Positions 40,565-56,206 of a stretch of 64,000 nucleotides of DNA are shown piece after piece. The stretch is taken from assembly GCA_028285445.1 (NCBI GenBank), contig JANQPQ010000012.1, forward strand, positions 1-64,000. Direction: 5' to 3'. The position numbers and the translations under genes were made by a program. The number at the start of each line of letters is the position of its first letter. Within the stretch, counting starts at the first letter, position 1. A model generated the notes under the pieces. The model saw nothing but the letters and a program-made list of their open reading frames with translations, was not told the origin of the DNA and made no database searches. The DNA comes from Cyclobacteriaceae bacterium. GTDB taxonomy: Bacteria; Bacteroidota; Bacteroidia; Cytophagales; Cyclobacteriaceae.

Positions 40565-42964
40565 CTACTCGTATCGAAGTGAGTGTGCCGGACTAATTAG
40601 AGCAGCCTTGATCGACTGGAAGCTAACTGTTATCAAGGCGATAATCAACGTGACAACTGCCGCTAGCAGGAAGATCCATATCTCAATTCCGATTCTAAAG
40701 GCAAATGTCTGCAGCCATTGATTCATCAGCAGCCAGACGATTGGTACGGCTATTAAATTAGCTATCAAAATCAATTTGACATACTCCTTAGACACCAAAA
40801 CAAAAATGGCTGGCACAGATGAACCTAAGGCTTTTCTAATACCAATTTCTTTTGTTCTTCTCGAAGCCGAAAATGACGCCAAGCCAAACAATCCCAAACA
40901 AGCAACGAAAATGGCCAGCAATGAGAAGAAGCTAAACACCTGACCAAACTGCTTTTCGGAGTTGTACTGCTCGTCAAAAAATGAGTCAAGGAAAAAATAA
41001 TCATAGGGGTTTCCCGGGAAAAACTGTCTATACTTCTCTCCAATAAAAGCCAAAGTTTGCCCGAGATTATCTGTTGATAACTTCACTGAGTAATAACTAC
41101 TAGCCGTTGGTCTTAGGAGGAAAGCAGTTTGGTCAAAATCTTTCATTAATCCCTCCTGATGATAATTCGCAATTACACCAACCACCTCAAGTGTGTCTCC
41201 ACCAATTACTGCTCTATCTCCGATAGCCTCTTCAGGTGAATCAAAACCGAGAAGTTTAACCGCTTTCTCGTTCAAAATAACACTGGACTGATCGGCTGTA
41301 AATTCCCTGGAATATCCTCTACCCGCCACAAGTCGATGTTGGTATGCGTCGATGAAGTCGTAGTCGATTCCGACCTTATACATTATAACAGATTGCTGTG
41401 TTGAGCCAAGCTTTCGGGAGCCATTGGTCCAGTAAATCAGGTTGCCAGGGATCTCTGTTGAAACGGCAGCCACCTCAATGCCAGGATGTTTGGCAAGCTC
41501 ATTCTTGAAGGTACCCAGGTCGTCAGCGTAGAGCGAATCGTTGGCAATTACACCGGGGCCATTAATCACCACCATTTGGTCTATATCTATTCCTAAATCC
41601 TGGTTCTGCATATAACTCAGTTGCTGCCTTACTATCAAGGTCCCGGCTATCAGCCCTACAGAGGCCACAAATTGTATCATTACCAGCACCTTTCTTAAAT
41701 CGAACCTGGACCGGCCACTACTGGTGGCTCCTTTAAGAACAACTGCAGGTTTGTATGAAGACAAAACGAATGCCGGGTATAAGCCAGACAAGAAGGCGCC
41801 GGCAACCAGCAAGCCGCCTAACGACAGCCAGAAATTGAGATTATTTATGATGTCAAGCTCCAGGCCTTTATTGGCCAATTGATTAAAGAGCGGTAAGGCT
41901 ATAAACAGTAGTAGCAACCCTAAAATGGCAGCAATTATATTCAGTAATACGGACTCAATGATAAACTGCCTGATCAGCTGTTTCTTTACTGCGCCAATGG
42001 CTTTTCTGATCCCGACTTCTTTGGCTCTCTCCAAGGCCCTGGCAGTACTGAGGTTTATGTAATTCACCCAGGCAATAACCAGGATAAAGAACGCAATAAG
42101 CATAAGGAAATAGACACTTCTACCGTTACCATTTACCCTGGCTTCTTGTATTAGATCAGAATAAAGGTGAATATCTTCCAGTGGTTGCAAAACGAACTTC
42201 ATTCGATTGCTGGCATTTTCTCCACCTTGCTTTTCTATATATGCTGGAAACTTAGCCTCCAGGTTATTTACACTAGCGCCGGGCTGAAGCTCGAGGTATG
42301 TATAGAAATCGTACCATCCCCAGGCGTCATCGAACCCCTGGCCCCACTGGTTAATGAGGGTGACATAGGATAATAGGAAATTAAATTTAAGGTGGGAATG
42401 CTCAGGTGACTTTATCACACCCGTAATTTCATATTCTTCCTGATTACCGAATTTTATATTCTTGCCAATAGGGTCTTCATCACCAAAGTACTTTTTAGCT
42501 GCCTCTACGGAGACCACTGCGGTGTTTGGCTCTTTCAAGGCTGTGGTAATATCTCCAGACACTAGCTCATAGGAAAAGAGATCTAGGAAATTCTGGTCAG
42601 CCTGGAAGAGGTAATCCTCTTTGATGCTAACCTCGCCATATCTAACCACCCCACCACCATAGCGAAGAAACAGCCGCGAATAGTTTACTACCTCTGGGAA
42701 TTCCTCTACCATGGTGGGTCCTACCCTGGGAAATGCTGTTGCACACTTAAACTGCAGGGCGCCATCGCTGTAAGAATCATACTCTACTCTATAAATATTG
42801 CTAGAGTTCTCATGAAATTGATCGTAGCTTAATTCATGGTCTACATATTGCAGAATTAGCAAACTGGCAGCAATTCCAATGGAAAGACCGGTGATATTAA
42901 GTAGAGTAAATCCCTTTTGGCGCAGAATATTTCGAAATGCAACTTTTAGGTAGTTTTTGAGCAT
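40565..42964 (-). CDS. MacB/FtsX-type ABC transporter permease (paralogue 1)
   Basis: A 799-residue inner-membrane permease. It has a helix near residue 20-40 (GFTLLNITGLSIGIAASLLIL), a periplasmic MacB-type domain to about 275, an FtsX helix block from about 280 to 400 (LMLIAFFILVIAWVNYINLSTARALERAKEVGIRKAIGA), a second periplasmic domain, and a closing FtsX block (SLLAIFVACLGLFGLASFSASRRTKEIGIRKALGSS) that ends SPAHSLRYE. This duplicated layout is specific to long Bacteroidota permeases, which act as mechanotransmitters for envelope export rather than as classical channels. No ATPase is adjacent; it is divergent from the CarH-like regulator and converges on the VOC gene. Confidence 0.93.
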   Translation of the reverse strand: MLKNYLKVAFRNILRQKGFTLLNITGLSIGIAASLLILQYVDHELSYDQFHENSSNIYRVEYDSYSDGALQFKCATAFPRVGPTMVEEFPEVVNYSRLFLRYGGGVVRYGEVSIKEDYLFQADQNFLDLFSYELVSGDITTALKEPNTAVVSVEAAKKYFGDEDPIGKNIKFGNQEEYEITGVIKSPEHSHLKFNFLLSYVTLINQWGQGFDDAWGWYDFYTYLELQPGASVNNLEAKFPAYIEKQGGENASNRMKFVLQPLEDIHLYSDLIQEARVNGNGRSVYFLMLIAFFILVIAWVNYINLSTARALERAKEVGIRKAIGAVKKQLIRQFIIESVLLNIIAAILGLLLLFIALPLFNQLANKGLELDIINNLNFWLSLGGLLVAGAFLSGLYPAFVLSSYKPAVVLKGATSSGRSRFDLRKVLVMIQFVASVGLIAGTLIVRQQLSYMQNQDLGIDIDQMVVINGPGVIANDSLYADDLGTFKNELAKHPGIEVAAVSTEIPGNLIYWTNGSRKLGSTQQSVIMYKVGIDYDFIDAYQHRLVAGRGYSREFTADQSSVILNEKAVKLLGFDSPEEAIGDRAVIGGDTLEVVGVIANYHQEGLMKDFDQTAFLLRPTASSYYSVKLSTDNLGQTLAFIGEKYRQFFPGNPYDYFFLDSFFDEQYNSEKQFGQVFSFFSLLAIFVACLGLFGLASFSASRRTKEIGIRKALGSSVPAIFVLVSKEYVKLILIANLIAVPIVWLLMNQWLQTFAFRIGIEIWIFLLAAVVTLIIALITVSFQSIKAALISPAHSLRYE

Positions 42965-43158: not shown

Positions 43159-44028
43159 ATGGGAACATATTCCATAAAAGATCTCGAGACTCTTTCTGGC
43201 ATTAAAGCTCACACCCTGAGGATATGGGAGAAGAGACATGGAATTATTACCCCAGAACGAACAACCACTAACATACGCTTCTATAGCGATCACGACCTGA
43301 AGAAGATACTTTGTGTTGCGCTACTCAACAGTCACGGGCTGAAAATTTCCAAAATTGTGGGCATGTCGGTCGACGAGCTGAATGAGAAGGTCATGGAGAT
43401 TGCTCATTATGCCGTGGGCAATGAGGGTCATCTGAATCAGCTGGTTATTGGTATGCTCGACCTGGATGAACAAAAATTCAACAAGATTATTAACGATTAT
43501 TCTCTGGAGCGGGGATTTGAAAGCACCATACTGGACTTGATATATCCTTTCCTGGAAAAGATCGGAGTGCTTTGGCAAACCAACAATATTCAGCCTGCGC
43601 ACGAGCATTTCATATCTTGCTTAATCAGGCAGAAAATTATCTCCGCAATAAACGCCATAGACACTCCAAAAACCGCGGAAGTTGATTTCTTACTATATCT
43701 TCCTGAAAATGAAATGCATGAATTGGGGCTGCTGTTTTACAACTACCTCGTAAGGAATGCAGGTTATTCCTCACTTTACCTCGGTCAGTCAGTTCCTTAC
43801 AATGACCTCAGGGCTGTTTTTAGAACCCGGCCATTCAAAAAGATTGTAACCTCTTTCGTGTCGCCAACTTCCAGGGAAGATCTATCAACCTACCTTGAAA
43901 ACCTCAAGAAGGACTTTCCATCGTGCGATATTCTGGTTTCTGGCTACCAGATCCAACACTACGGGTTTACCAACGACGCCAACCTCACAACCTTCAAGAC
44001 AGCTAAGGATTTAAGAGCTCTTATCTAG
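43159..44028 (+). CDS. MerR-family regulator with CarH-like cobalamin-binding domain
   Basis: A 289-residue regulator. Residues 1-70 form a MerR winged helix (YSIKDLETLSGIKAHTLRIWEKRHGI). Residues 75-160 form the helical cap with the CarH hallmark W-x9-EH (Trp139, Glu149, His150), and the rest is a B12-binding Rossmann domain with E-x-H-x-x-G (Glu185, His187, Gly190), the lower axial ligand motif. In CarH, adenosylcobalamin makes a DNA-binding tetramer that light breaks, freeing carotenoid genes. Two differences: the residue after Trp139 is Gln, where Thermus CarH has the light-state ligand His132, and the usual GG near the C-terminus reads SGY. Cobalamin use is therefore likely but not certain. 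It precedes the carotenoid operon and its twin operator. Confidence 0.9.
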   Translation: MGTYSIKDLETLSGIKAHTLRIWEKRHGIITPERTTTNIRFYSDHDLKKILCVALLNSHGLKISKIVGMSVDELNEKVMEIAHYAVGNEGHLNQLVIGMLDLDEQKFNKIINDYSLERGFESTILDLIYPFLEKIGVLWQTNNIQPAHEHFISCLIRQKIISAINAIDTPKTAEVDFLLYLPENEMHELGLLFYNYLVRNAGYSSLYLGQSVPYNDLRAVFRTRPFKKIVTSFVSPTSREDLSTYLENLKKDFPSCDILVSGYQIQHYGFTNDANLTTFKTAKDLRALI

Positions 44029-44062
44029 TTTGTTCAATAATTTTTAATTTTTATTAAACAAA
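44029..44062. promoter_or_regulatory. inverted-repeat operator, copy 1 of 2, likely for the CarH-like regulator
   Basis: TTTGTTCAA at 44029-44037 and TTAAACAAA at 44054-44062, separated by 16 bases; with the flanks the arms extend to 12 bases (TTTGTTCAATAA / TTATTAAACAAA, one mismatch). It starts right after the regulator's stop codon. The second copy has the same arms and spacer and starts exactly 63 bases later. Confidence 0.7.
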
Positions 44063-44091
44063 GTGATCAACTATTCGTTTATATCTAAAAT

Positions 44092-44125
44092 TTTGTTTAA
44101 CTTTACTATATAAACATTAAACAAA
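44092..44125. promoter_or_regulatory. inverted-repeat operator, copy 2 of 2, abutting the sigma gene start
   Basis: TTTGTTTAA at 44092-44100 and TTAAACAAA at 44117-44125 with a 16-base spacer. The arms are perfect inverted repeats. The right arm ends on the base before the TTG start codon of the sigma gene, so bound protein would block both the promoter region and the translation start. Copies 1 and 2 lie six helical turns apart, on the same face of DNA. Confidence 0.72.
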
Positions 44126-44626
44126 TTGAACACACTAACTTTCTCTAATCAACTTGTAGAAATGACCGACACGCTGCGGTTGTTCACTAAGAGGTTCACT
44201 AATAACGATGAAGAGTCTAGAGATTTAGTGCAGGACACAATTCTCAAGGCGCTTACCTATCGTCACCGATTCATGGATAATACAAACCTGAAAGGTTGGC
44301 TCTATACTATTATGAGAAATATCTTCATCAATAATTACAGAAGGAAGAAGCGGACCTCCGAAGTTCATGATAATACAGAATCACAGTATTACCTTAATGT
44401 TGCCGATGATGTTACCTCCAATTTTCCGGTGCGCAGCCTGGAATTCAAGGAATTGACGGAGATTGTTGAAAGTACAAAAGAAGAATTCCTTAGGCCATTC
44501 CAAATGTATGTTGACGGATACCACTATCACGAAATAGCTGAGGAACTTGGCATACCCCTGGGAACGGTGAAAACCCGGATATTCTATGCGAGGAAGGATA
44601 TAAAGAAGAAGATAAAAAATAACTAA
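44126..44626 (+). CDS. ECF-type RNA polymerase sigma factor of the carotenoid operon
   Basis: A 166-residue sigma factor with region 2 (LFTKRFTNNDEESRDLVQDTILKAL, then LKGWLYTIMRNIFINNYRRKKR) and region 4 (MYVDGYHYHEIAEELGIPLGTVKTRIFYARKDIKKKI). It starts at TTG, immediately after an operator arm; the residues NTLTFSNQLVEMTDTLR look like the N-terminus common to this group, so TTG is preferred over an ATG 12 codons later (44162). No anti-sigma gene is adjacent: control is presumably transcriptional, by the CarH-like protein upstream. It is followed by crtI after 8 bases and would be the first gene of the carotenoid/photolyase operon. Confidence 0.88.
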   Translation: MNTLTFSNQLVEMTDTLRLFTKRFTNNDEESRDLVQDTILKALTYRHRFMDNTNLKGWLYTIMRNIFINNYRRKKRTSEVHDNTESQYYLNVADDVTSNFPVRSLEFKELTEIVESTKEEFLRPFQMYVDGYHYHEIAEELGIPLGTVKTRIFYARKDIKKKIKNN

Positions 44627-44634
44627 TTTTCCAT

Positions 44635-46131
44635 ATGTCACGGAAAGTCGCAGTTATTGGGGGAGGTTTTGCCGGGTTATCTGCGGCGAGCCACCTTGCA
44701 AAAGCTGGCTGTTCCGTTACATTACTTGAAAAAAATAGCACCCTTGGAGGAAGAGCGCGTAAGTTCGAAACCCAAGGGTTTACTTTTGATATGGGCCCTA
44801 GTTGGTATTGGATGCCTGATGTTTTTCAAAAGTACTTCGAGTCCTTTGGTAGCTCTCCAGCAGACCACTACGATCTGATTCGGCTTGATCCCTCCTACCG
44901 TATATTCTTTTCGAAGGAAGAAATTATAGATATACCTGCTGGCTACGAAGAACTTCTGGAATTATTTGAAAACTTAGAATCTGGCGCTGCCGGGAAGTTG
45001 GAGAAGTTTCTCAAGGAGGCCGAGATAAAATATAAAGTAGGAATACAGGATCTGGTTTACAAGCCAGGGTTGTCATTGGCAGAATACCTTGATCATAGGG
45101 TAATCAGCGGAGTTTTTAACCTACACCTTTTCCAGGATGTTGCCAGCTATGTAAGAAGGCACTTCAAGCACCCAAGCCTGGTACAAATGCTTGAGTTTCC
45201 AGTTCTGTTCCTGGGAGCAATGCCCTCCGAAACGCCCGCGCTTTACACCCTTATGAACTACGCCGACATCAAACTAGGAACCTGGTATCCGCAAGGTGGC
45301 ATGAACAACATTATTAAGGGCATGGAGTCGGTAGCCAAATCATTAGGCGTAGAATTTCTACTTAACTCGGAAATCTCTGCGATCGAAGTAATTAATGATA
45401 CCGCAGTTTCTGTGGAAAGGCAGGGAGAGAAATTGCAAATAGATGCGGCCATTGCTGCTGCGGATTATCATCATGTGGAAACAAGTCTTCTGCCGGAAGG
45501 ATATCGAAACTACAGTGAGCGATATTGGCAATCCAGGGTTATGGCTCCCAGCAGTTTGATCTTTTACCTGGGAATAGACAAAAAATTGCAGGGTCTTCTT
45601 CACCACAACCTGTTTTTCGACCAGTCATTTTCAAAGCATGCTGAAGAGATTTACAAAAATCCTCAATGGCCAAGCAACCCTCTCTTCTATGTTTGTTGTC
45701 CTTCAATTACAGACGATAGTGTGGCGCCGGCAAATTGTGAAAATTTATTCATTCTAATACCAGTGGCTCCTGGTTTAGAGGATAGTAAAGAGATTAGAGA
45801 TCAATACTTCCAACTCGTTATGGAAAGACTGGAATCCTTAACAGGCCAAAGTATTAAAGAGCATATCCTGGTGGAGAAAAGCTATGCCCACAAGAATTTC
45901 ATTGAAGACTACCATTCATTTAAGGGCAATGCTTATGGATTAGCAAATACTTTAAAACAAACTGCTATCTTGAAGCCAAGTCTGAAAAACAAAAGGGTAA
46001 GTAATTTGTTCTATGCAGGTCAACTAACAGTTCCTGGCCCTGGAGTTCCACCATCCATAATTTCAGGTGAAGTGGCCGCAAAACAGTTATTGAAAACTCA
46101 AAACAAAACATGGAATGAAATCACTGTTTGA
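44635..46131 (+). CDS. crtI: phytoene desaturase
   Basis: A 498-residue FAD-dependent desaturase that converts phytoene to lycopene at the membrane. The dinucleotide-binding motif GGGFAGLSAASHLAKAG is at the N-terminus, followed by LLEKNSTLGGRARKFE; the bacterial-type C-terminal motif is present in FYAGQLTVPGPGVPPSIISGEVAAKQLL. Length is that of CrtI. It overlaps crtB by 17 bases. Product lycopene is the substrate for the CrtYcd cyclase encoded further along. Confidence 0.95.
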   Translation: MSRKVAVIGGGFAGLSAASHLAKAGCSVTLLEKNSTLGGRARKFETQGFTFDMGPSWYWMPDVFQKYFESFGSSPADHYDLIRLDPSYRIFFSKEEIIDIPAGYEELLELFENLESGAAGKLEKFLKEAEIKYKVGIQDLVYKPGLSLAEYLDHRVISGVFNLHLFQDVASYVRRHFKHPSLVQMLEFPVLFLGAMPSETPALYTLMNYADIKLGTWYPQGGMNNIIKGMESVAKSLGVEFLLNSEISAIEVINDTAVSVERQGEKLQIDAAIAAADYHHVETSLLPEGYRNYSERYWQSRVMAPSSLIFYLGIDKKLQGLLHHNLFFDQSFSKHAEEIYKNPQWPSNPLFYVCCPSITDDSVAPANCENLFILIPVAPGLEDSKEIRDQYFQLVMERLESLTGQSIKEHILVEKSYAHKNFIEDYHSFKGNAYGLANTLKQTAILKPSLKNKRVSNLFYAGQLTVPGPGVPPSIISGEVAAKQLLKTQNKTWNEITV

Positions 46132-46954
46132 TGAGGTTGCCATCAAATGTAGTCGCCTAACCACGCGATCTTACAGCACATCATTTTCACTGGGTATTCA
46201 GCTCCTGGGCAAAGAGCTGAGAGACCCTGTCTATGCAATCTATGGGTTTGTAAGATTTGCTGACGAAATTGTAGATACTTTCCACGATTACAATAAGGAA
46301 GAGCTGCTCACTAAATTCAAATCTGATACCTACGAGGCTATCGAATCTGGTATCAGCTTAAATCCTATTTTGAATAGCTTTCAGCATGCCGTTAATCGCT
46401 ATAATATTGATCACGACCTTATTGAAACTTTCCTAAAAAGCATGGAGATGGACCTGCTGCAGGTTGAATATGACCAGGAGAGGTTTGAGGAATACATCCT
46501 CGGGTCAGCCGAGGTTGTTGGCCTCATGTGCCTCAAAGTATTCACCGGAGGAGATGAAGAGCAGTACCGTCAGCTACAACCATATGCTATGGCTTTAGGC
46601 TCTGCGTTTCAAAAGGTTAACTTCTTACGCGATGTAAAGAACGACCTGGAGTATTTGGGTAGATCGTACTTCCCGGGAGTGAACCTTGAGTCGTTGGATG
46701 AGCAAACCAAATCAGAGATTGAGCAAGACATTGAAAAAGATTTTAATAAGGCATTAATAGGTATAAAAAAACTTCCCCAAACTTCTCAATTTGGCGTTTA
46801 CATTGCCTACGTTTATTACTACGCCCTTTTCAAGAAAATTCAGGCAACTCCTTCCCGTAGCATTCTTAAGCAAAGAATCAGGATTCCAAACAATAAGAAA
46901 TATGGGATGCTGGTTGGCTCATACTTGCGTTATAGATTAAACCTGATCCGCTAA
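46115..46954 (+). CDS. crtB: phytoene synthase
   Basis: A 279-residue squalene/phytoene synthase that joins two geranylgeranyl diphosphates to phytoene. Both Asp-rich motifs for Mg-diphosphate are visible: FADEIVDTFHDY near residue 49 and FLRDVKNDLEYLGRSYFP near residue 170. The start lies inside the end of crtI (17-base overlap) and the stop shares one base with the idi ATG, so translation of all three is coupled. The supply enzyme CrtE is not in the window. Confidence 0.94.
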   Translation: MKSLFDEVAIKCSRLTTRSYSTSFSLGIQLLGKELRDPVYAIYGFVRFADEIVDTFHDYNKEELLTKFKSDTYEAIESGISLNPILNSFQHAVNRYNIDHDLIETFLKSMEMDLLQVEYDQERFEEYILGSAEVVGLMCLKVFTGGDEEQYRQLQPYAMALGSAFQKVNFLRDVKNDLEYLGRSYFPGVNLESLDEQTKSEIEQDIEKDFNKALIGIKKLPQTSQFGVYIAYVYYYALFKKIQATPSRSILKQRIRIPNNKKYGMLVGSYLRYRLNLIR

Positions 46955-47478
46955 TGGAAGAAGTCGTATTAGTTGACAATCATGACAATGCCATTGGTTT
47001 CATGGAAAAAATGGAGGCCCACAGAGAAGGCGTATTGCACAGAGCTTTCTCGGTTTTCCTTTTCAATGACAACGCTGAGCTGCTGTTGCAAAAAAGGGCT
47101 GAGGACAAATACCATTCAGGCGGGCTTTGGACAAATACTTGCTGCAGCCATCCCAGACCTGACGAAGCTGTACTAAGTGCCGCTACCCGCAGGTTGATGG
47201 AGGAAATGGGAATCATTTGTGAACTTACTCCTGCCTTCACTTTTACCTACAAATCACAGTTCGAAAATGGCTTGATTGAACATGAACTCGATCATGTTCT
47301 TATCGGTGAATTCAATGGCGAACCCAGTTTGAATCGCGAAGAAGCCACGGACTGGCGATATGTCTCCTTATCAGACCTGGCCCAGGAATTAGAAAACAAC
47401 AGCAGCAAATACACCGCTTGGCTAAAGATCGCTTTCCCAAAACTGCAAAAATTCCTCGCTGATAACCCCTCCAATTGA
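46954..47478 (+). CDS. idi: isopentenyl-diphosphate delta-isomerase, type 1
   Basis: A 174-residue Nudix-type isomerase converting IPP to DMAPP. The zinc-binding catalytic Cys in NTCCSHPRPDE, the Nudix-like AATRRLMEEMG, and the second acidic site in EHELDHVLIGEF are visible. Placement within a carotenoid operon balances the C5 units for GGPP formation. Its ATG overlaps the crtB stop by one base and its stop overlaps the photolyase TTG. Confidence 0.93.
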   Translation: MEEVVLVDNHDNAIGFMEKMEAHREGVLHRAFSVFLFNDNAELLLQKRAEDKYHSGGLWTNTCCSHPRPDEAVLSAATRRLMEEMGIICELTPAFTFTYKSQFENGLIEHELDHVLIGEFNGEPSLNREEATDWRYVSLSDLAQELENNSSKYTAWLKIAFPKLQKFLADNPSN

Positions 47479-48794
47479 ATACCCTTAACGTTGCAGATGA
47501 CTTGAAGCAAAAGGTCCTCTTTTGGTTTAGACGAGACCTAAGAATTGAAGACAATACCGCGCTTTTTCATGCCCTAAGGGCCAATCCTGAAGTAGTCCCA
47601 CTATTCATATTCGATATTAACATCCTTTCCGAATTGCCAAAAGACGATCCCCGGGTAGGATTTATCTATGACACAGTGGTCTCCATTAAATCTCGGTTGG
47701 AAGAAATGGGCTCATCGCTTTTGATTTTGCATGGTGACCCAATCCAACTAATAAAATCTATGGTGCCAGTAGCCATTTACACCAATCGTGATTACGAGCC
47801 TTACGCAATTGAGAGAGATGAGCTAGTCAAACAGTTGCTGGAAGGGCAAGGTTCTGGCTTTCATACCTTTAAGGATCAGGTGGTGTTTGAAAAAAGCGAA
47901 ATAGTTAAAGACGACGGATCACCCTACACTATTTACACTCCGTATATGAGAAAATGGAAGAATGAGTTGGCCAATCAGGACACAAATTCCTTCAGCGTTG
48001 CCCCTATGTATTCGAACCTACTCAAATGCAAACCTCTTCCCTACCCTTCTTTAGGTGAAATTGGTTTTGAGTCGTCCCAGATCGCAATTCCCCCACAAAC
48101 TTTAGATAAAAGTATTGTTGACAACTATCATAATACACGAGATATACCGGCTATTGTGGGAACCAGCAAGCTGGGCTTGCACTTTAGGTTCGGTACAGTT
48201 AGTATCAGGGAATTGGTAAGGGTTGCCATCAAGATGAATGAAACCTGGCTCAATGAATTGATCTGGAGGGAATTCTTTATGATGATCCTGTGGCATTTTC
48301 CGGAAGTGGTAACTAATACCTTTAAGCCTCAATACAACGACTTGCCATGGCATAATAACGACCAACATTTCAAACTTTGGTGTGAAGGAAAAACTGGCTA
48401 TCCGTTAGTAGATGCGGGTATGCGGGAATTGAATGCCACCGGCTTTATGCACAACCGTGTTCGGATGGTCACCGCCAGCTTCCTATGCAAGCACCTCCTA
48501 ATTGATTGGCGGTGGGGTGAGGCCTATTTCGCCGCCAAACTTTTGGATTACGAGCTTGCCTCTAATAATGGCAATTGGCAATGGGCTGCTGGCACAGGAT
48601 GCGACGCAGCGCCTTATTTCCGAGTCTTCAATCCTACACGACAGCAAGAAAGGTTCGATCCTGATTTCACCTACATAAAGAAATGGGTAGCAGAGTTTAA
48701 CTCTCCCAGCTACCCGCAGCCTCTGGTAAATCATGATGAAGCCAGGAAACGAGCTATTGACTTTTACAAACAGCATTTGCCCTCAAACAATTAG
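47475..48794 (+). CDS. cryptochrome/DNA photolyase family protein (class I photolyase-like)
   Basis: A 439-residue flavoprotein. The N-terminal photolyase domain opens FWFRRDLRIEDN; the FAD domain carries WRWGEAYFAAKLLDYELASNNG and WQWAAGTGCDAAPYFRVFNP, with the Asn and tryptophans used in FAD binding and electron transfer. Length and these motifs fit CPD photolyase of class I, which repairs UV dimers with blue light; a cryptochrome role is possible. Two TTG codons could start it: 47475 (overlapping the idi stop) and 47502, the latter giving KQKVLFWFRRDLR, closer to usual N-termini. Part of the light-controlled operon. Confidence 0.92.
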   Translation: MNTLNVADDLKQKVLFWFRRDLRIEDNTALFHALRANPEVVPLFIFDINILSELPKDDPRVGFIYDTVVSIKSRLEEMGSSLLILHGDPIQLIKSMVPVAIYTNRDYEPYAIERDELVKQLLEGQGSGFHTFKDQVVFEKSEIVKDDGSPYTIYTPYMRKWKNELANQDTNSFSVAPMYSNLLKCKPLPYPSLGEIGFESSQIAIPPQTLDKSIVDNYHNTRDIPAIVGTSKLGLHFRFGTVSIRELVRVAIKMNETWLNELIWREFFMMILWHFPEVVTNTFKPQYNDLPWHNNDQHFKLWCEGKTGYPLVDAGMRELNATGFMHNRVRMVTASFLCKHLLIDWRWGEAYFAAKLLDYELASNNGNWQWAAGTGCDAAPYFRVFNPTRQQERFDPDFTYIKKWVAEFNSPSYPQPLVNHDEARKRAIDFYKQHLPSNN

Positions 48795-48831: not shown

Positions 48832-49311
48832 ATGAAGACCTATATCCTGGAAAGAGAACAACTATTGCCAATTTCAGTGGATGAGGCCTGGGATTTCTTC
48901 TCTTCTCCAAAGAATTTGAGTAAGATAACTCCTGACTACATGGGCTTCGAGATTAAGTCTGAACTTCCACCAAGAATGTATTCGGGGCTTAAGGTAGCAT
49001 ATACCGTAAAGCCATTGTTGGGCTTGCCGATGAGATGGGTGAGTGAGATTGATGAAGTGGACGAACCAAAGTACTTTGTCGATAGGCAATTGAAAGGGCC
49101 CTACAAGCTCTGGGTACACCAGCACTTTATAGAAGAAACAAGTAAGGGTGTAAAAGTTTCTGACAGGGTGGAATATGCACTTCCCCTGGGAATTTTGGGT
49201 CAAATTGCACATTGGCTTTTTGTCAAGCGTCAGCTAAATGGTATCTTTGACTATCGTAAGAAGGTATTGTCAAAATTGTTTAGTGACAAGCCAAGCTTGC
49301 AAGTGGCATGA
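48832..49311 (+). CDS. SRPBCC-family ligand-binding-like protein
   Basis: A 159-residue START/Bet v1-like (SRPBCC) protein with the pattern ILEREQLLPISVDEAWDFFSSPKNLSKITP at its N-terminus and the C-terminal amphipathic helix LFVKRQLNGIFDYRKKVLSKLF. The fold encloses a hydrophobic pocket that could hold a carotenoid or an isoprenoid; the reaction is unknown. The ATG at 48832 is preceded by AAGGAG, a rare Shine-Dalgarno-like sequence here, and is preferred over a start at 48733 that lies inside the photolyase gene. It overlaps crtZ by 4 bases (ATGA). Confidence 0.85.
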   Translation: MKTYILEREQLLPISVDEAWDFFSSPKNLSKITPDYMGFEIKSELPPRMYSGLKVAYTVKPLLGLPMRWVSEIDEVDEPKYFVDRQLKGPYKLWVHQHFIEETSKGVKVSDRVEYALPLGILGQIAHWLFVKRQLNGIFDYRKKVLSKLFSDKPSLQVA

Positions 49312-49769
49312 GTACCTTAATAAATATTTTGCTGGTTACCGGCACCTTCTTTTTCATGGAGTTCATGGCCTGGTTTACACACAAATTTGTGATGCATGGT
49401 TTCCTGTGGATACTCCATCGTGATCATCACGTAAACGAGCCAGGGTTCTTTGAAAAGAACGACGCCTTCTTCCTAATCTTTGCCATCCCGAGCATTACAC
49501 TAATGGCTATCGGTATGAATACACTTGGATTTCCATTTTGGATTGGGTTGGGAATCTTGATTTATGGCTTAGCTTACTTCATGGTCCATGATATCTTTAT
49601 CCACCAACGATTCAAACTTTTTACTCGAAGTAATAACATCTATCTACGGGCCATAAGAAAAGCTCATAAGGTGCATCACAAGCACTTGGGTAAAGAAGAA
49701 GGTGAATGCTTTGGTATGCTGCTGGTACCCTGGAAGTACTTTAGGGAAGCGCTGGCTACCAAGAAGTAG
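49308..49769 (+). CDS. crtZ: beta-carotene 3-hydroxylase
   Basis: A 153-residue membrane di-iron hydroxylase that hydroxylates both rings of beta-carotene, giving zeaxanthin. The histidine-rich motifs of the family are present: HKFVMHG, HRDHH, HDIFIHQRF and HKVHHKH. Four predicted membrane segments. Begins with a 4-base overlap with the SRPBCC gene and ends 4 bases before the CrtYcd gene. Confidence 0.93.
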   Translation: MSTLINILLVTGTFFFMEFMAWFTHKFVMHGFLWILHRDHHVNEPGFFEKNDAFFLIFAIPSITLMAIGMNTLGFPFWIGLGILIYGLAYFMVHDIFIHQRFKLFTRSNNIYLRAIRKAHKVHHKHLGKEEGECFGMLLVPWKYFREALATKK

Positions 49770-49773
49770 CCTT

Positions 49774-50466
49774 ATGTATACCTACCTTCTTGTCAATCTA
49801 TTCACTATTATTATTCCCTTTGGTTATAGCTTTGACAGGCGCATTCGTTTTCATAAGCAATGGCGTCATCTATTCCCGGCCATGCTCATCAGTGGTGGTT
49901 TATTCATTGCTTGGGATGTCGCATTTACCAATTGGGGGGTTTGGGGGTTCAACGCACGCTACCTCCTGGGAATCGAAATTATCAATTTGCCCTTAGAGGA
50001 ATGGCTTTTCTTTATTGCTATCCCCTATGCATGTGTTTTCACCTATGAGGCCTTCAAGGTTCTGATTCCTCACGACTTGTTAGGCAAACAATCAAGGGTA
50101 ATAAGTTGGGTACTAATTCTTGGCCTTTCCATTATAGCGATATTTAACCTAGAAAAGGCGTATACTGCCACAACCTTTTTGCTGCTGAGCGCCTTCATAG
50201 CGTTCCTCGAAATAGTGGTAAAGCCAAAATATCTTGGGCGCTTTTACCTGGCTTACGGAGTTGTAATTCTCCCCTTCTTCATAGTTAACGGCATTCTTAC
50301 TGGATCCTGGATTGACGAGGAAGTAGTTTGGTATAATGACCTGGAAAATCTTGGAATTAGAATGGGAACAATACCTGTTGAGGACACATTTTACGGTATG
50401 CTATTAATCCTTCTCAATGTATTTCTGTTTGAATTACTGAGATCCAGGCAGAGGAAATCCTCCTAG
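49774..50466 (+). CDS. crtYcd: lycopene beta-cyclase, fused CrtYc-CrtYd type
   Basis: A 230-residue membrane protein with about seven helices that combines both halves of the heterodimeric lycopene cyclase. Each half has the catalytic acidic motif: NLPLEEWLFFIAIPYACVFT in the first and IPVEDTFYGMLLILLN in the second. It turns lycopene to beta-carotene. From the ATG at 49774 the protein begins MYTYLLVNLF, the usual N-terminus; a start at 49702 would lie inside crtZ. Last gene of the operon. Confidence 0.93.
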   Translation: MYTYLLVNLFTIIIPFGYSFDRRIRFHKQWRHLFPAMLISGGLFIAWDVAFTNWGVWGFNARYLLGIEIINLPLEEWLFFIAIPYACVFTYEAFKVLIPHDLLGKQSRVISWVLILGLSIIAIFNLEKAYTATTFLLLSAFIAFLEIVVKPKYLGRFYLAYGVVILPFFIVNGILTGSWIDEEVVWYNDLENLGIRMGTIPVEDTFYGMLLILLNVFLFELLRSRQRKSS

Positions 50467-53803: not shown

Positions 53804-56206
53804 TCATCCGACATTTCTTAGTGATTCAACCGGATTGACAACAGCCGCTTTTACGGACTGGTATACAACGGTGATTAAACCTAACAGGAAAACTACCAGG
53901 ACACTTATAATATATGTATCAAGCCCCAATACAATTCTATAAGCGAACTCCTGCAACCAGGTATTTAGTAGCCAATATGAAAATGGAGCAATTAAAGCAA
54001 ATCCCATGAGTATCAGCAACCCAAAGTCTTTGCCTAGCAGATAGACTATTCCCTTCACAGAAGCACCCAGCACTTTCCTAATTCCAATTTCCTTTGTTCT
54101 TTGTTCGGCAATGAATGCCGTGAGTCCCAACAACCCCATTGATCCAATTGCTATCGCGAGAAAACTAAAGGCAGACATAAGGAAACCAACGTTTTCTTCT
54201 GATTTATAAAGTCGTTCGAAGGACTCATCCAGAAAATCGTAGCTAAACGCTCGTTCGGGTTCTATTTTCTTCCATTCTTCTTCGATAGCGGCAATTGTAG
54301 AAGAGATGTTTGTGCTATTTATCTTCACAGCAGCCACCCACAGGTTAACCGGATTTTCAATCCAGCATGCCAGTGGTTCCACTTCTCGCTGTAAACCCTT
54401 GTAGTGGAAGTCCTGGATAACACCGACAATTTTTCCACGGGGGCGCTCCTGGCCACGAACAATAAAGTCCATACCAATCGGATCGGATATGCCGAACTCC
54501 TCCACAAACTTTTCATTTACTATATAGCCTGAATTCCCATCTGTTGGAAAATCCTGCGAAAAACTCCTCCCCTGCTCAATTTCAATTCCCAGCGTATTGA
54601 AATAGTCAAAGTCAACAAGTAGCGTATTAATATTTGTCCTAATTGGTTCACCATCGTTGGTGAATTCATAGCTGTAGTGGGAGTTCATTATGCCCGGTAT
54701 TCCATTTGCATGCGTAACACTAAGTATCTCAGACTGGTTGAGCAAGCTCTGCTTGAATTGAGAGAAATTCCTCCTCACATCTCCCGTTAAGGAAAATGTA
54801 ACCACCTGGTCCTTATCAAATCCCAGCTTTGAGTTTTTCATAAAAGTTAACTGCCGATGGGCCGTGATGGTACCAACTATCAAAAATGACGCTATGGCAA
54901 ACTGAAATACGGTAAGCACCTTGCGGATAATACTACTTCCGCCGTCTTTAGATTGAGGCTTTAATGCCGAGGATGGTCGGAAGGATGAAAGATAGAAAGC
55001 GGGGTAGCTTCCAGCTAGGATACCTGTTACGAGACCCGTAAAAAACATCCCCAGTATTAGGCCCACATTATCAACGTAGTTTATTGAGAAGCCCACTCCA
55101 AGAAATTCACTTAAATATGGCACAACTCCTTCCAAAATTATAATTGATAATAGAAAGGCGATCTGACTAATAAGGACACTCTCTCCAAGGAATTGTAAGA
55201 TTAGCTGCCTTCTGCCTGCCCCCATTACTTTACGCATACCTACTTCCTTTGACCGTCTTATAGCCCTGGCCGTAGCGAGGTTCATGAAATTCAAGCAAGC
55301 TATGAGCAAAATAAATATTGCAACGGCTGAGAATCCGTAAACGTAAGTAATGTCTCCAGTTGCAGTATCAGCACGAATACCTTGGGTGAAGTGAATTTCA
55401 GTGAGGGGTTGAAAGATGAGCTGGCTATTGGGATTAGGTTCCCGGCCTCTGGCTTCATCTAAGTAATCAGAAGCTCTAATTTCCAGATCCTCAATTTCCT
55501 TGCTATTTGGAATATAAAAGTAGGTAGAGTAATTCCAGGAATCTAGCTGTGTAAACAGGTCTTCCCTTGCTGCACCAAATGAACTTAGCAGTGGTCGCAT
55601 GGAAGAGAAAGAGGTGACATAGGAGAACTGCAAATGCGAGTTCTGTGGGGTATCTTCGAAGACACCGGTAATTTCAAAATCAAAGGCATTATTAAATCGG
55701 ATAGTCTTACCGACAGGGTCTTCTCCAGCAAAGCTTGTTTCGGCAATACTTTGTGAGATAACAATGTTCATAGGGCGTTTCAAGACTAATGCAGGATCTC
55801 CCGTCTTTAACTTAAATGAGAACATCTGGAAAAAAGTACTGTCTGCTAGCACAATGTTTTGATCTGGCATCTCTTTCTCCCCAAACTTTATCGAGTTACC
55901 TGACCCCCAATCCACAAATCGGCAACTTCTTTCAATCTCCCGGAACTGGTCTTCTAATAACGGCGCCAGGCCAGCAGGTGTCCAGGTTTGTCTCTGCTCT
56001 ACATTATTACTTATTCGCTGCGGAATTACACGGTAGATATCGTCTCTATTCTCGTGGAAATTCTCGTAACTTGTTTCGAAGGCCACATAAAGGAGAATTA
56101 TAAAACAACTAGCCAACCCTAGTCCTAAACCTAATATGTTAATAAGTGAATAGCCTTTGTAGCGAAACAGATTGCGAATAGCAATTCTCCAGTAGTTTTT
56201 GAGCAT
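53804..56206 (-). CDS. MacB/FtsX-type ABC transporter permease (paralogue 2)
   Basis: An 800-residue permease. N-terminal helix GYSLINILGLGLGLASCFIILLYV, MacB-type periplasmic domain (FETSYENFHENRDDIYRV), first FtsX block with NFMNLATARAIRRSKEVGMRKVMGAGRRQL, second periplasmic domain, and second FtsX block with GLTAFIAEQRTKEIGIRKVLGASVKG; C-terminus NPVESLRNVG, which departs from the usual LRxE ending. It is the last of four tandem minus-strand permease genes and ends at a bidirectional terminator. The ATPase for the set is probably the one at the right edge of the window. Confidence 0.93.
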   Translation of the reverse strand: MLKNYWRIAIRNLFRYKGYSLINILGLGLGLASCFIILLYVAFETSYENFHENRDDIYRVIPQRISNNVEQRQTWTPAGLAPLLEDQFREIERSCRFVDWGSGNSIKFGEKEMPDQNIVLADSTFFQMFSFKLKTGDPALVLKRPMNIVISQSIAETSFAGEDPVGKTIRFNNAFDFEITGVFEDTPQNSHLQFSYVTSFSSMRPLLSSFGAAREDLFTQLDSWNYSTYFYIPNSKEIEDLEIRASDYLDEARGREPNPNSQLIFQPLTEIHFTQGIRADTATGDITYVYGFSAVAIFILLIACLNFMNLATARAIRRSKEVGMRKVMGAGRRQLILQFLGESVLISQIAFLLSIIILEGVVPYLSEFLGVGFSINYVDNVGLILGMFFTGLVTGILAGSYPAFYLSSFRPSSALKPQSKDGGSSIIRKVLTVFQFAIASFLIVGTITAHRQLTFMKNSKLGFDKDQVVTFSLTGDVRRNFSQFKQSLLNQSEILSVTHANGIPGIMNSHYSYEFTNDGEPIRTNINTLLVDFDYFNTLGIEIEQGRSFSQDFPTDGNSGYIVNEKFVEEFGISDPIGMDFIVRGQERPRGKIVGVIQDFHYKGLQREVEPLACWIENPVNLWVAAVKINSTNISSTIAAIEEEWKKIEPERAFSYDFLDESFERLYKSEENVGFLMSAFSFLAIAIGSMGLLGLTAFIAEQRTKEIGIRKVLGASVKGIVYLLGKDFGLLILMGFALIAPFSYWLLNTWLQEFAYRIVLGLDTYIISVLVVFLLGLITVVYQSVKAAVVNPVESLRNVG

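What the first reader, a model, noticed from the sequence alone, without database searches (positions are those of the whole stretch)
44029..44125. Two identical inverted repeats exactly 63 bp apart between a CarH-like regulator and its sigma gene
TTTGTTYAA-N16-TTAAACAAA occurs twice (44029-44062 and 44092-44125) with the same arms and the same 16-base spacer. The offset of 63 bp is six helical turns. Copy 2 ends on the base before the sigma gene's start codon. This looks like a cooperative operator for two oligomers of the MerR/CarH-like protein encoded directly upstream, which would repress the whole carotenoid and photolyase operon in the dark.
Basis: partly seen in the sequence, partly recalled or inferred. 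Interest (0 to 1): 0.85.

Follow-up and report, generated by a model that had tools for sequence, protein, structure and literature searches.

The report
Paired operator for a B12 light sensor
Two matching mirror-image DNA sites lie beside a gene for a vitamin-B12 light-sensor-type repressor and in front of its pigment and DNA-repair genes; the same site recurs across many Bacteroidota in front of pigment, rhodopsin, photolyase-cofactor and related genes, so it looks like the DNA switch of a phylum-wide light response that I found no description of.

Summary
TTTGTTYAA-N16-TTRAACAAA occurs at 44029-44062 and 44092-44125, 63 bp apart; the 5.48-Mb genome has one other place within 2 mismatches, upstream of a fasciclin gene. 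The upstream gene is a CarH-type MerR/B12-binding protein (AlphaFold model matches Thermus CarH, Z 18.6; AdoCbl residues W139, E149, H150, H187 kept in 99-100% of 136 relatives).

The motif is order-wide (289 hits versus 42 for the reversed pattern in genomes with the regulator). Motif hits across Bacteroidota lie upstream of the ECF sigma gene, crtI, the regulator itself, fasciclins, pterin-synthesis genes, rhodopsin and a beta-carotene dioxygenase. The pair is conserved, but 63 bp is only one preferred offset: offsets cluster near 35, 43.5, 54, 63 and 73 bp, about 10-bp steps. In many relatives the gene-proximal copy covers the -7 promoter box, which fits steric repression.

The operator is not the tandem 11-bp direct repeat described for CarH: half-sites are inverted, 25 bp centre to centre, though each contains CarH's TnnACA. 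I call it a new operator variant of the CarH/LitR system. Binding, B12 and light dependence are untested.

The parts
44029..44062 (.). Operator copy 1 (distal), TTTGTTCAA-N16-TTAAACAAA; starts on the base after the merR stop codon
   Evidence: equivalent upstream copy in many orthologous loci
44092..44125 (.). Operator copy 2 (proximal), TTTGTTTAA-N16-TTAAACAAA; ends on the base before the sigma gene's TTG start
   Evidence: same place in most merR-ecf loci
44088..44095 (+). Candidate -7 element AAATTTTG (one mismatch to TAnnTTTG), overlapping the left arm of copy 2 and 59 bp downstream of the start of copy 1
   Evidence: sequence; position rule in relatives; weak in the window itself
43159..44028 (+). 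CarH/LitR-type regulator: MerR DNA-binding domain plus B12-binding domain, 289 aa; proposed binder of the operators
   Evidence: Pfam, phmmer to Thermus CarH/LitR, conserved W139/E149/H150/H187, model versus 5c8e Z 18.6
44126..44626 (+). ECF sigma factor, first gene of the proposed controlled operon
   Evidence: Pfam Sigma70_r2 and r4_2
44635..46131 (+). Phytoene desaturase-like amine oxidoreductase (crtI)
   Evidence: Pfam Amino_oxidase; crtI assignment by context
46115..46954 (+). Phytoene synthase (crtB)
   Evidence: Pfam SQS_PSY
46954..47478 (+). NUDIX protein, probable isopentenyl-diphosphate isomerase (idi)
   Evidence: Pfam NUDIX; idi assignment by context
47475..48794 (+). DNA photolyase/cryptochrome family protein
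   Evidence: Pfam DNA_photolyase and FAD_binding_7
48832..49311 (+). SRPBCC-like protein (named by eye, no Pfam hit); relatives elsewhere directly follow the motif
49308..49769 (+). Fatty-acid-hydroxylase family protein, probable beta-carotene hydroxylase (crtZ)
   Evidence: Pfam FA_hydroxylase
49702..50466 (+). Lycopene cyclase (crtY type); the ORF as listed starts at GTG 49702 and overlaps crtZ
   Evidence: Pfam Lycopene_cyc

Best explanation
The two inverted repeats are a paired operator for the CarH/LitR-type protein encoded directly upstream. In the dark the AdoCbl-loaded protein binds both copies on one face of the DNA and sits over the -33/-7 promoter region of the ECF sigma-carotenoid-photolyase operon, excluding RNA polymerase. 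Light breaks the AdoCbl Co-C bond, the oligomer comes apart, and the operon plus a third site (a fasciclin gene) are derepressed; the ECF factor may spread the response. Shown here: the motif, its conservation, pairing, preferred offsets, promoter overlap in relatives, regulon content, and the CarH-type fold and residues. Inferred: that this protein binds the motif, that it represses, and that B12 and light control it.
For: Own genome: three exact places within 2 mismatches, two of them here. Order: 289 hits versus 42 for the reversed pattern in 153 genomes with the regulator; 11 versus 2 in 41 genomes without it. Class: 97 of 296 genomes have exact hits while the reversed pattern almost never hits. 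Scan by motif alone: sites lead into ECF (17 loci), fasciclin (15), pterin synthase PTPS (14), CrtI (12), SRPBCC (6), MerR itself (6), rhodopsin (5), GTP cyclohydrolase I (4) and beta-carotene dioxygenase (4). Pairs: offsets cluster at 35, 43.5, 54, 63 and 73 bp. Promoter: TAnnTTTG at offset 16/17 of the gene-proximal copy 36 times sense versus 3 antisense, with TTG 21-24 bp upstream of it in 21 of 36. Spacer positions 12-13 and 21-23 are nearly GC-free, a symmetric constraint that was not selected for. Protein. Cobalamin adenosyltransferase in the genome.
Against: No binding, light or B12 experiment. The motif is not the published tandem 11-bp CarH repeat, and TnnACA is not enriched at 11-bp steps. 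The position of TtCarH H132 is Q140. The window's own -7 match has one mismatch and there is no clear -33 TTG. TetR_C_23 proteins have a similar distribution. Six genomes without a detected regulator carry the motif, five of them 75-84% complete. Loci are related by descent, so counts overstate independence.
Confidence: 0.77

Rival explanations
1. The repeats are bound by a different regulator, for example the TetR_C_23-type protein common in the same genomes, and the CarH-like gene is only a linked regulon member.
For: TetR_C_23 genes lie behind the motif in 5 loci; TetR_C_23 occurs in 142 of 194 genomes; all 5 genomes with TetR_C_23 but no detected regulator have the motif; TetR-type proteins often bind palindromes (own knowledge).
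Against: 11 of 16 genomes with the CarH-like gene but no TetR_C_23 still have the motif, including near-complete ones (G006, G086, G140, G177, G185); four of the five TetR-only genomes are 75-84% complete. The motif adjoins merR far more often, on either side of it.
Confidence: 0.12
2. One CarH tetramer uses its four DNA-binding domains on the four half-sites of the pair, bending or looping the promoter, rather than two oligomers binding cooperatively. (A variant of the best explanation, not exclusive with its main claim.)
For: Four half-sites per pair; CarH forms tetramers with four DNA-binding domains (PMC9304148); offsets keep helical phase.
Against: Many regulon sites are single repeats, so two half-sites can suffice there; offsets range from 35 to 73 bp, which a rigid single tetramer would have difficulty spanning.
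Confidence: 0.25
3. The ECF sigma factor, not the CarH-like protein, recognises the element as its own promoter.
For: The element lies immediately upstream of the sigma gene.
Against: It is a symmetric palindrome; it precedes merR or crtI in loci without an adjacent ecf; it overlaps a housekeeping-type -33/-7 promoter rather than forming a directional one.
Confidence: 0.03
4. RNA hairpins or a terminator between merR and ecf.
For: Each repeat can fold into a weak hairpin.
Against: MFE only -3.5 to -3.6 kcal/mol per copy; z -1.2 for the whole stretch; no GC-rich stem; the motif precedes genes in several arrangements and overlaps promoter boxes.
Confidence: 0.02

Closest known systems
CarH of Thermus thermophilus and Bacillus megaterium (AdoCbl photoreceptor-repressor)
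   Same: MerR domain plus B12-binding domain, Wx9EH and ExH residues, carotenoid target genes, operator overlapping the promoter, TnnACA in each half-site
   Different: Known operators are three or four tandem 11-bp direct repeats (PMC9304148); here inverted half-sites 25 bp centre to centre, often as two phased pairs. TtCarH H132 is Q here.
Myxococcus xanthus CarA/CarH operator at PB
   Same: Two inverted repeats were described, bound cooperatively by two CarA dimers and overlapping the -35 element
   Different: Described within about 55 bp and now read as direct repeats; no separated pair at 44 or 63 bp; the ECF factor there (CarQ) belongs to a separate pathway with an anti-sigma.
Class II LitR of Pseudomonas mendocina (PmlR2)
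   Same: LitR/CarH-family regulator controlling light-responsive genes (abstract)
   Different: It is an effector of a LOV photoreceptor; the protein here keeps the AdoCbl-binding residues.
Light-induced carotenoid cluster of Chryseobacterium lacus
   Same: Bacteroidota crt genes induced by light (PMC7064467)
   Different: The authors found no car or lit operon and left the regulator open; this genome was not examined here.

Membership tests
CarH/LitR AdoCbl photoreceptor repressor | N-terminal MerR-type DNA-binding domain | tested here: met
   PF13411 E 4.9e-13
CarH/LitR AdoCbl photoreceptor repressor | C-terminal B12-binding fold (helical bundle plus Rossmann) | tested here: met
   PF02607; phmmer to LitR/CarH E about 1e-19; model versus 5c8e Z 18.6, rmsd 2.4, 197 aligned
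CarH/LitR AdoCbl photoreceptor repressor | AdoCbl-contact residues equivalent to W131, E141, H142 and axial H177 | tested here: met
   W139, E149, H150, H187 at 100/100/99/100% in 136 orthologs
CarH/LitR AdoCbl photoreceptor repressor | H132 of TtCarH (a Thermus feature, not a family requirement as far as I know) | tested here: not met
   Q140; Q in 62% of orthologs
CarH/LitR AdoCbl photoreceptor repressor | Binds AdoCbl, oligomerises in the dark, falls apart in light | not testable with these tools
   needs purified protein
CarH/LitR AdoCbl photoreceptor repressor | Gene linked to carotenoid genes | tested here: met
   linkage in the window and in relatives; control of those genes was not tested
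CarH-type operator (tandem 11-bp direct repeats nnnnTnnACAn) | Three or more tandem TnnACA repeats at 11-bp steps | tested here: not met
   window TnnACA at 44055, 44111, 44118, 44127 (+) and 44031, 44094, 44155 (-); no enrichment at 11 or 22 bp in 178 sites
CarH-type operator (tandem 11-bp direct repeats nnnnTnnACAn) | TnnACA in each half-site | tested here: met
   TAAACA-type right arm in 177 of 178 sites; both right arms in the window (44055, 44118) and, on the other strand, both left arms (44031, 44094)
CarH-type operator (tandem 11-bp direct repeats nnnnTnnACAn) | Overlaps promoter elements | tested here: inconclusive
   met in many relatives; in the window the -7 candidate has one mismatch

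The most novel reading that the evidence does not exclude
A single AdoCbl-photoreceptor repressor family runs a Bacteroidota-wide light regulon (carotenoids, photolyase with its pterin cofactor, rhodopsin and retinal synthesis, fasciclins) through a clamp-like operator: the distal inverted repeat is held about 60 bp upstream of the -7 box and the proximal repeat slides over the promoter in whole helical turns, so the AdoCbl-assembled oligomer closes over RNA polymerase's site from one DNA face and light opens it.
Probability: 0.35. Interest if true: 0.8.

Novelty: new variant of a known kind. Interest (0 to 1): 0.63.

Why it matters
CarH is the textbook B12 photoreceptor, but in the papers I could read its operator is known only from Thermus, Bacillus and myxobacteria. 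If the protein binds this motif, CarH-type DNA recognition also works on widely spaced inverted half-sites, and the motif becomes a ready marker for light-controlled genes across Bacteroidota. That bears on open questions in print: how rhodopsin expression is regulated in flavobacteria (PMC3587595 says further work is needed) and which regulator drives light-induced carotenoids in Chryseobacterium (PMC7064467).

Tried and rejected
Terminator or RNA structure: weak folds, rejected. ECF-promoter reading: the motif occurs without ecf. TetR_C_23 as binder: tested by co-occurrence, disfavoured but not excluded. A -7 box at offset -4 of the proximal copy: 32 sense versus 24 antisense, so mostly explained by the arm's own TTTG; I do not lean on it except where the distal copy is 62-64 bp away. 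Periodicity with each distinct offset counted once is only suggestive (p 0.03-0.05 at a fixed period, 0.12 when the period is scanned), so the strong all-loci value partly reflects shared descent. Rhodopsin upstream regions: 6 of 30 have the motif at <=2 mismatches, none for the reversed control, so rhodopsin control would be lineage-specific. Literature: searches for Bacteroidota CarH/LitR operators found nothing on this motif; subscription journals and preprints are not held.

Full report
Observation. They differ in one arm base and in spacer sequence, share 16-bp spacers and lie 63 bp apart. Copy 1 begins right after the merR stop; copy 2 ends right before TTG 44126, which alignment with orthologous sigma factors supports as the start. 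In the whole 5.48-Mb genome only one other place matches within 2 mismatches; it lies upstream of a protein that by sequence is a two-domain fasciclin (its relatives behind the motif elsewhere carry PF02469).

The regulator. The 289-aa protein has a MerR domain and a B12-binding helical domain. Its nearest solved relatives are Thermus LitR/CarH, and an AlphaFold model (mean pLDDT 89) matches AdoCbl-bound CarH with Z 18.6 over 197 residues. The AdoCbl contacts W, E, H and the axial H are kept in 99-100% of 136 relatives, while TtCarH H132 is usually Q. The stretch around residues 32-42 (P-x-R-T-D-T-N-I-R-x-Y) is strongly conserved in these relatives and differs from TtCarH at the wing, as expected if one shared but non-Thermus operator is recognised. 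The genome encodes a cobalamin adenosyltransferase.

Conservation of the site. In 194 genomes of the order, 153 have the regulator at E<=1e-25. With <=1 mismatch, genomes with the regulator hold 289 motif hits against 42 for the reversed pattern; genomes without it hold 11 against 2. In the class, 97 of 296 genomes have an exact hit and the reversed pattern is almost absent. In merR-ecf-crtI loci the motif stands directly before ecf. In genus g19 it is degenerate, with a 17-bp spacer (the scan missed it in L140). Where merR is not next to crt, the motif is sometimes upstream of merR itself; many such merR loci show no nearby motif.

What else it controls. Genes starting within 400 bp fall into families: ECF 17 loci, fasciclin 15, 6-pyruvoyl-tetrahydropterin synthase 14, CrtI 12, SRPBCC 6, MerR 6, TetR_C_23 5, rhodopsin 5, flavin reductase-like 4, GTP cyclohydrolase I 4, beta-carotene dioxygenase 4. 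Some of these are divergent neighbours of one site. Five of the six stretches without a nearby gene start come from other phyla, as expected for chance hits. The content (pigment, photolyase and pterin cofactor, rhodopsin and retinal) reads as a light response; that label is inference.

Architecture. With sites of <=1 mismatch as anchors and partners of <=3, 50 pairs were found against 8 in a reversed control, 7 of which lie at 28-30 bp. Offsets cluster at 35 (2), 43.5 (22), 54 (4), 63 (15) and 73 (3). Pooled periodicity near 10 bp is strong; counting each distinct offset once it is only suggestive. The window's 63 bp is shared with other genera and families. For 186 gene-proximal sites, TAnnTTTG starts at offset 16 or 17 in 36 cases sense and 3 antisense, and at offset 6 in 7 and 0; TTG lies 21-24 bp upstream of that box in 21 of 36. 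This matches the flavobacterial promoter consensus quoted in PMC3587595. In most loci with both features the distal repeat starts 56-62 bp upstream of the -7 box whatever the offset; there are exceptions (38-41 and 80-81). The window fits with 59 bp, but its box AAATTTTG has one mismatch. Spacer positions 12-13 and 21-23 have 2-4% GC against 11-44% elsewhere in the spacer, a roughly symmetric feature not used in selecting the sites.

Comparison. Known CarH operators are tandem 11-bp direct repeats nnnnTnnACAn overlapping -35 or -10 (PMC9304148); M. xanthus CarA binds about 55 bp cooperatively as two dimers (PMC8156234). Here each arm contains TnnACA, but the half-sites are inverted and 25 bp apart, with no 11-bp series. 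So the protein passes the CarH tests that could be run, while the operator fails the published operator definition: a new operator variant, not a new kind of system.

Limits. Nothing here shows binding, repression, B12 or light dependence. Loci are related by descent. TetR_C_23 remains a minor rival.

Noticed in passing
window 44074-44082: TTCGTTTAT between the two copies matches the left half-site at 7 of 9 positions, 45 bp after copy 1 starts, close to the 43-44 bp offset common in relatives; possibly a relic of the other arrangement.
   Followed up: partly
G000:C34:18263-18296 (L001 1501-1534): Third exact motif copy in the genome, about 26 bp upstream of a 308-aa fasciclin-like protein; fasciclin genes follow the motif in 15 loci of other species.
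   Followed up: partly
L071 (G179:C132): A transposase-like ORF and a lipoprotein-like gene separate merR from ecf (by eye), yet the repeat stays directly before ecf.
   Followed up: no
L051, L217: The motif lies 26-67 bp upstream of rhodopsin genes (L051 by eye, L217 by Pfam); 6 of 30 class-wide rhodopsin upstream regions carry the motif.
   Followed up: partly
L056, L061, L144: The motif lies before pterin-synthesis genes (PTPS, in L056 and L061 followed by folE by eye), perhaps supplying the photolyase/cryptochrome antenna cofactor.
   Followed up: partly
window 40565-42964 and 53804-56206: Two large FtsX/MacB-like permease ORFs on the minus strand flank the carotenoid cluster (by eye).
   Followed up: no
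window 43159-44028, residue 140: Q at the position of TtCarH H132; the Bacteroidota proteins may use a different post-light state from Thermus CarH.
   Followed up: partly
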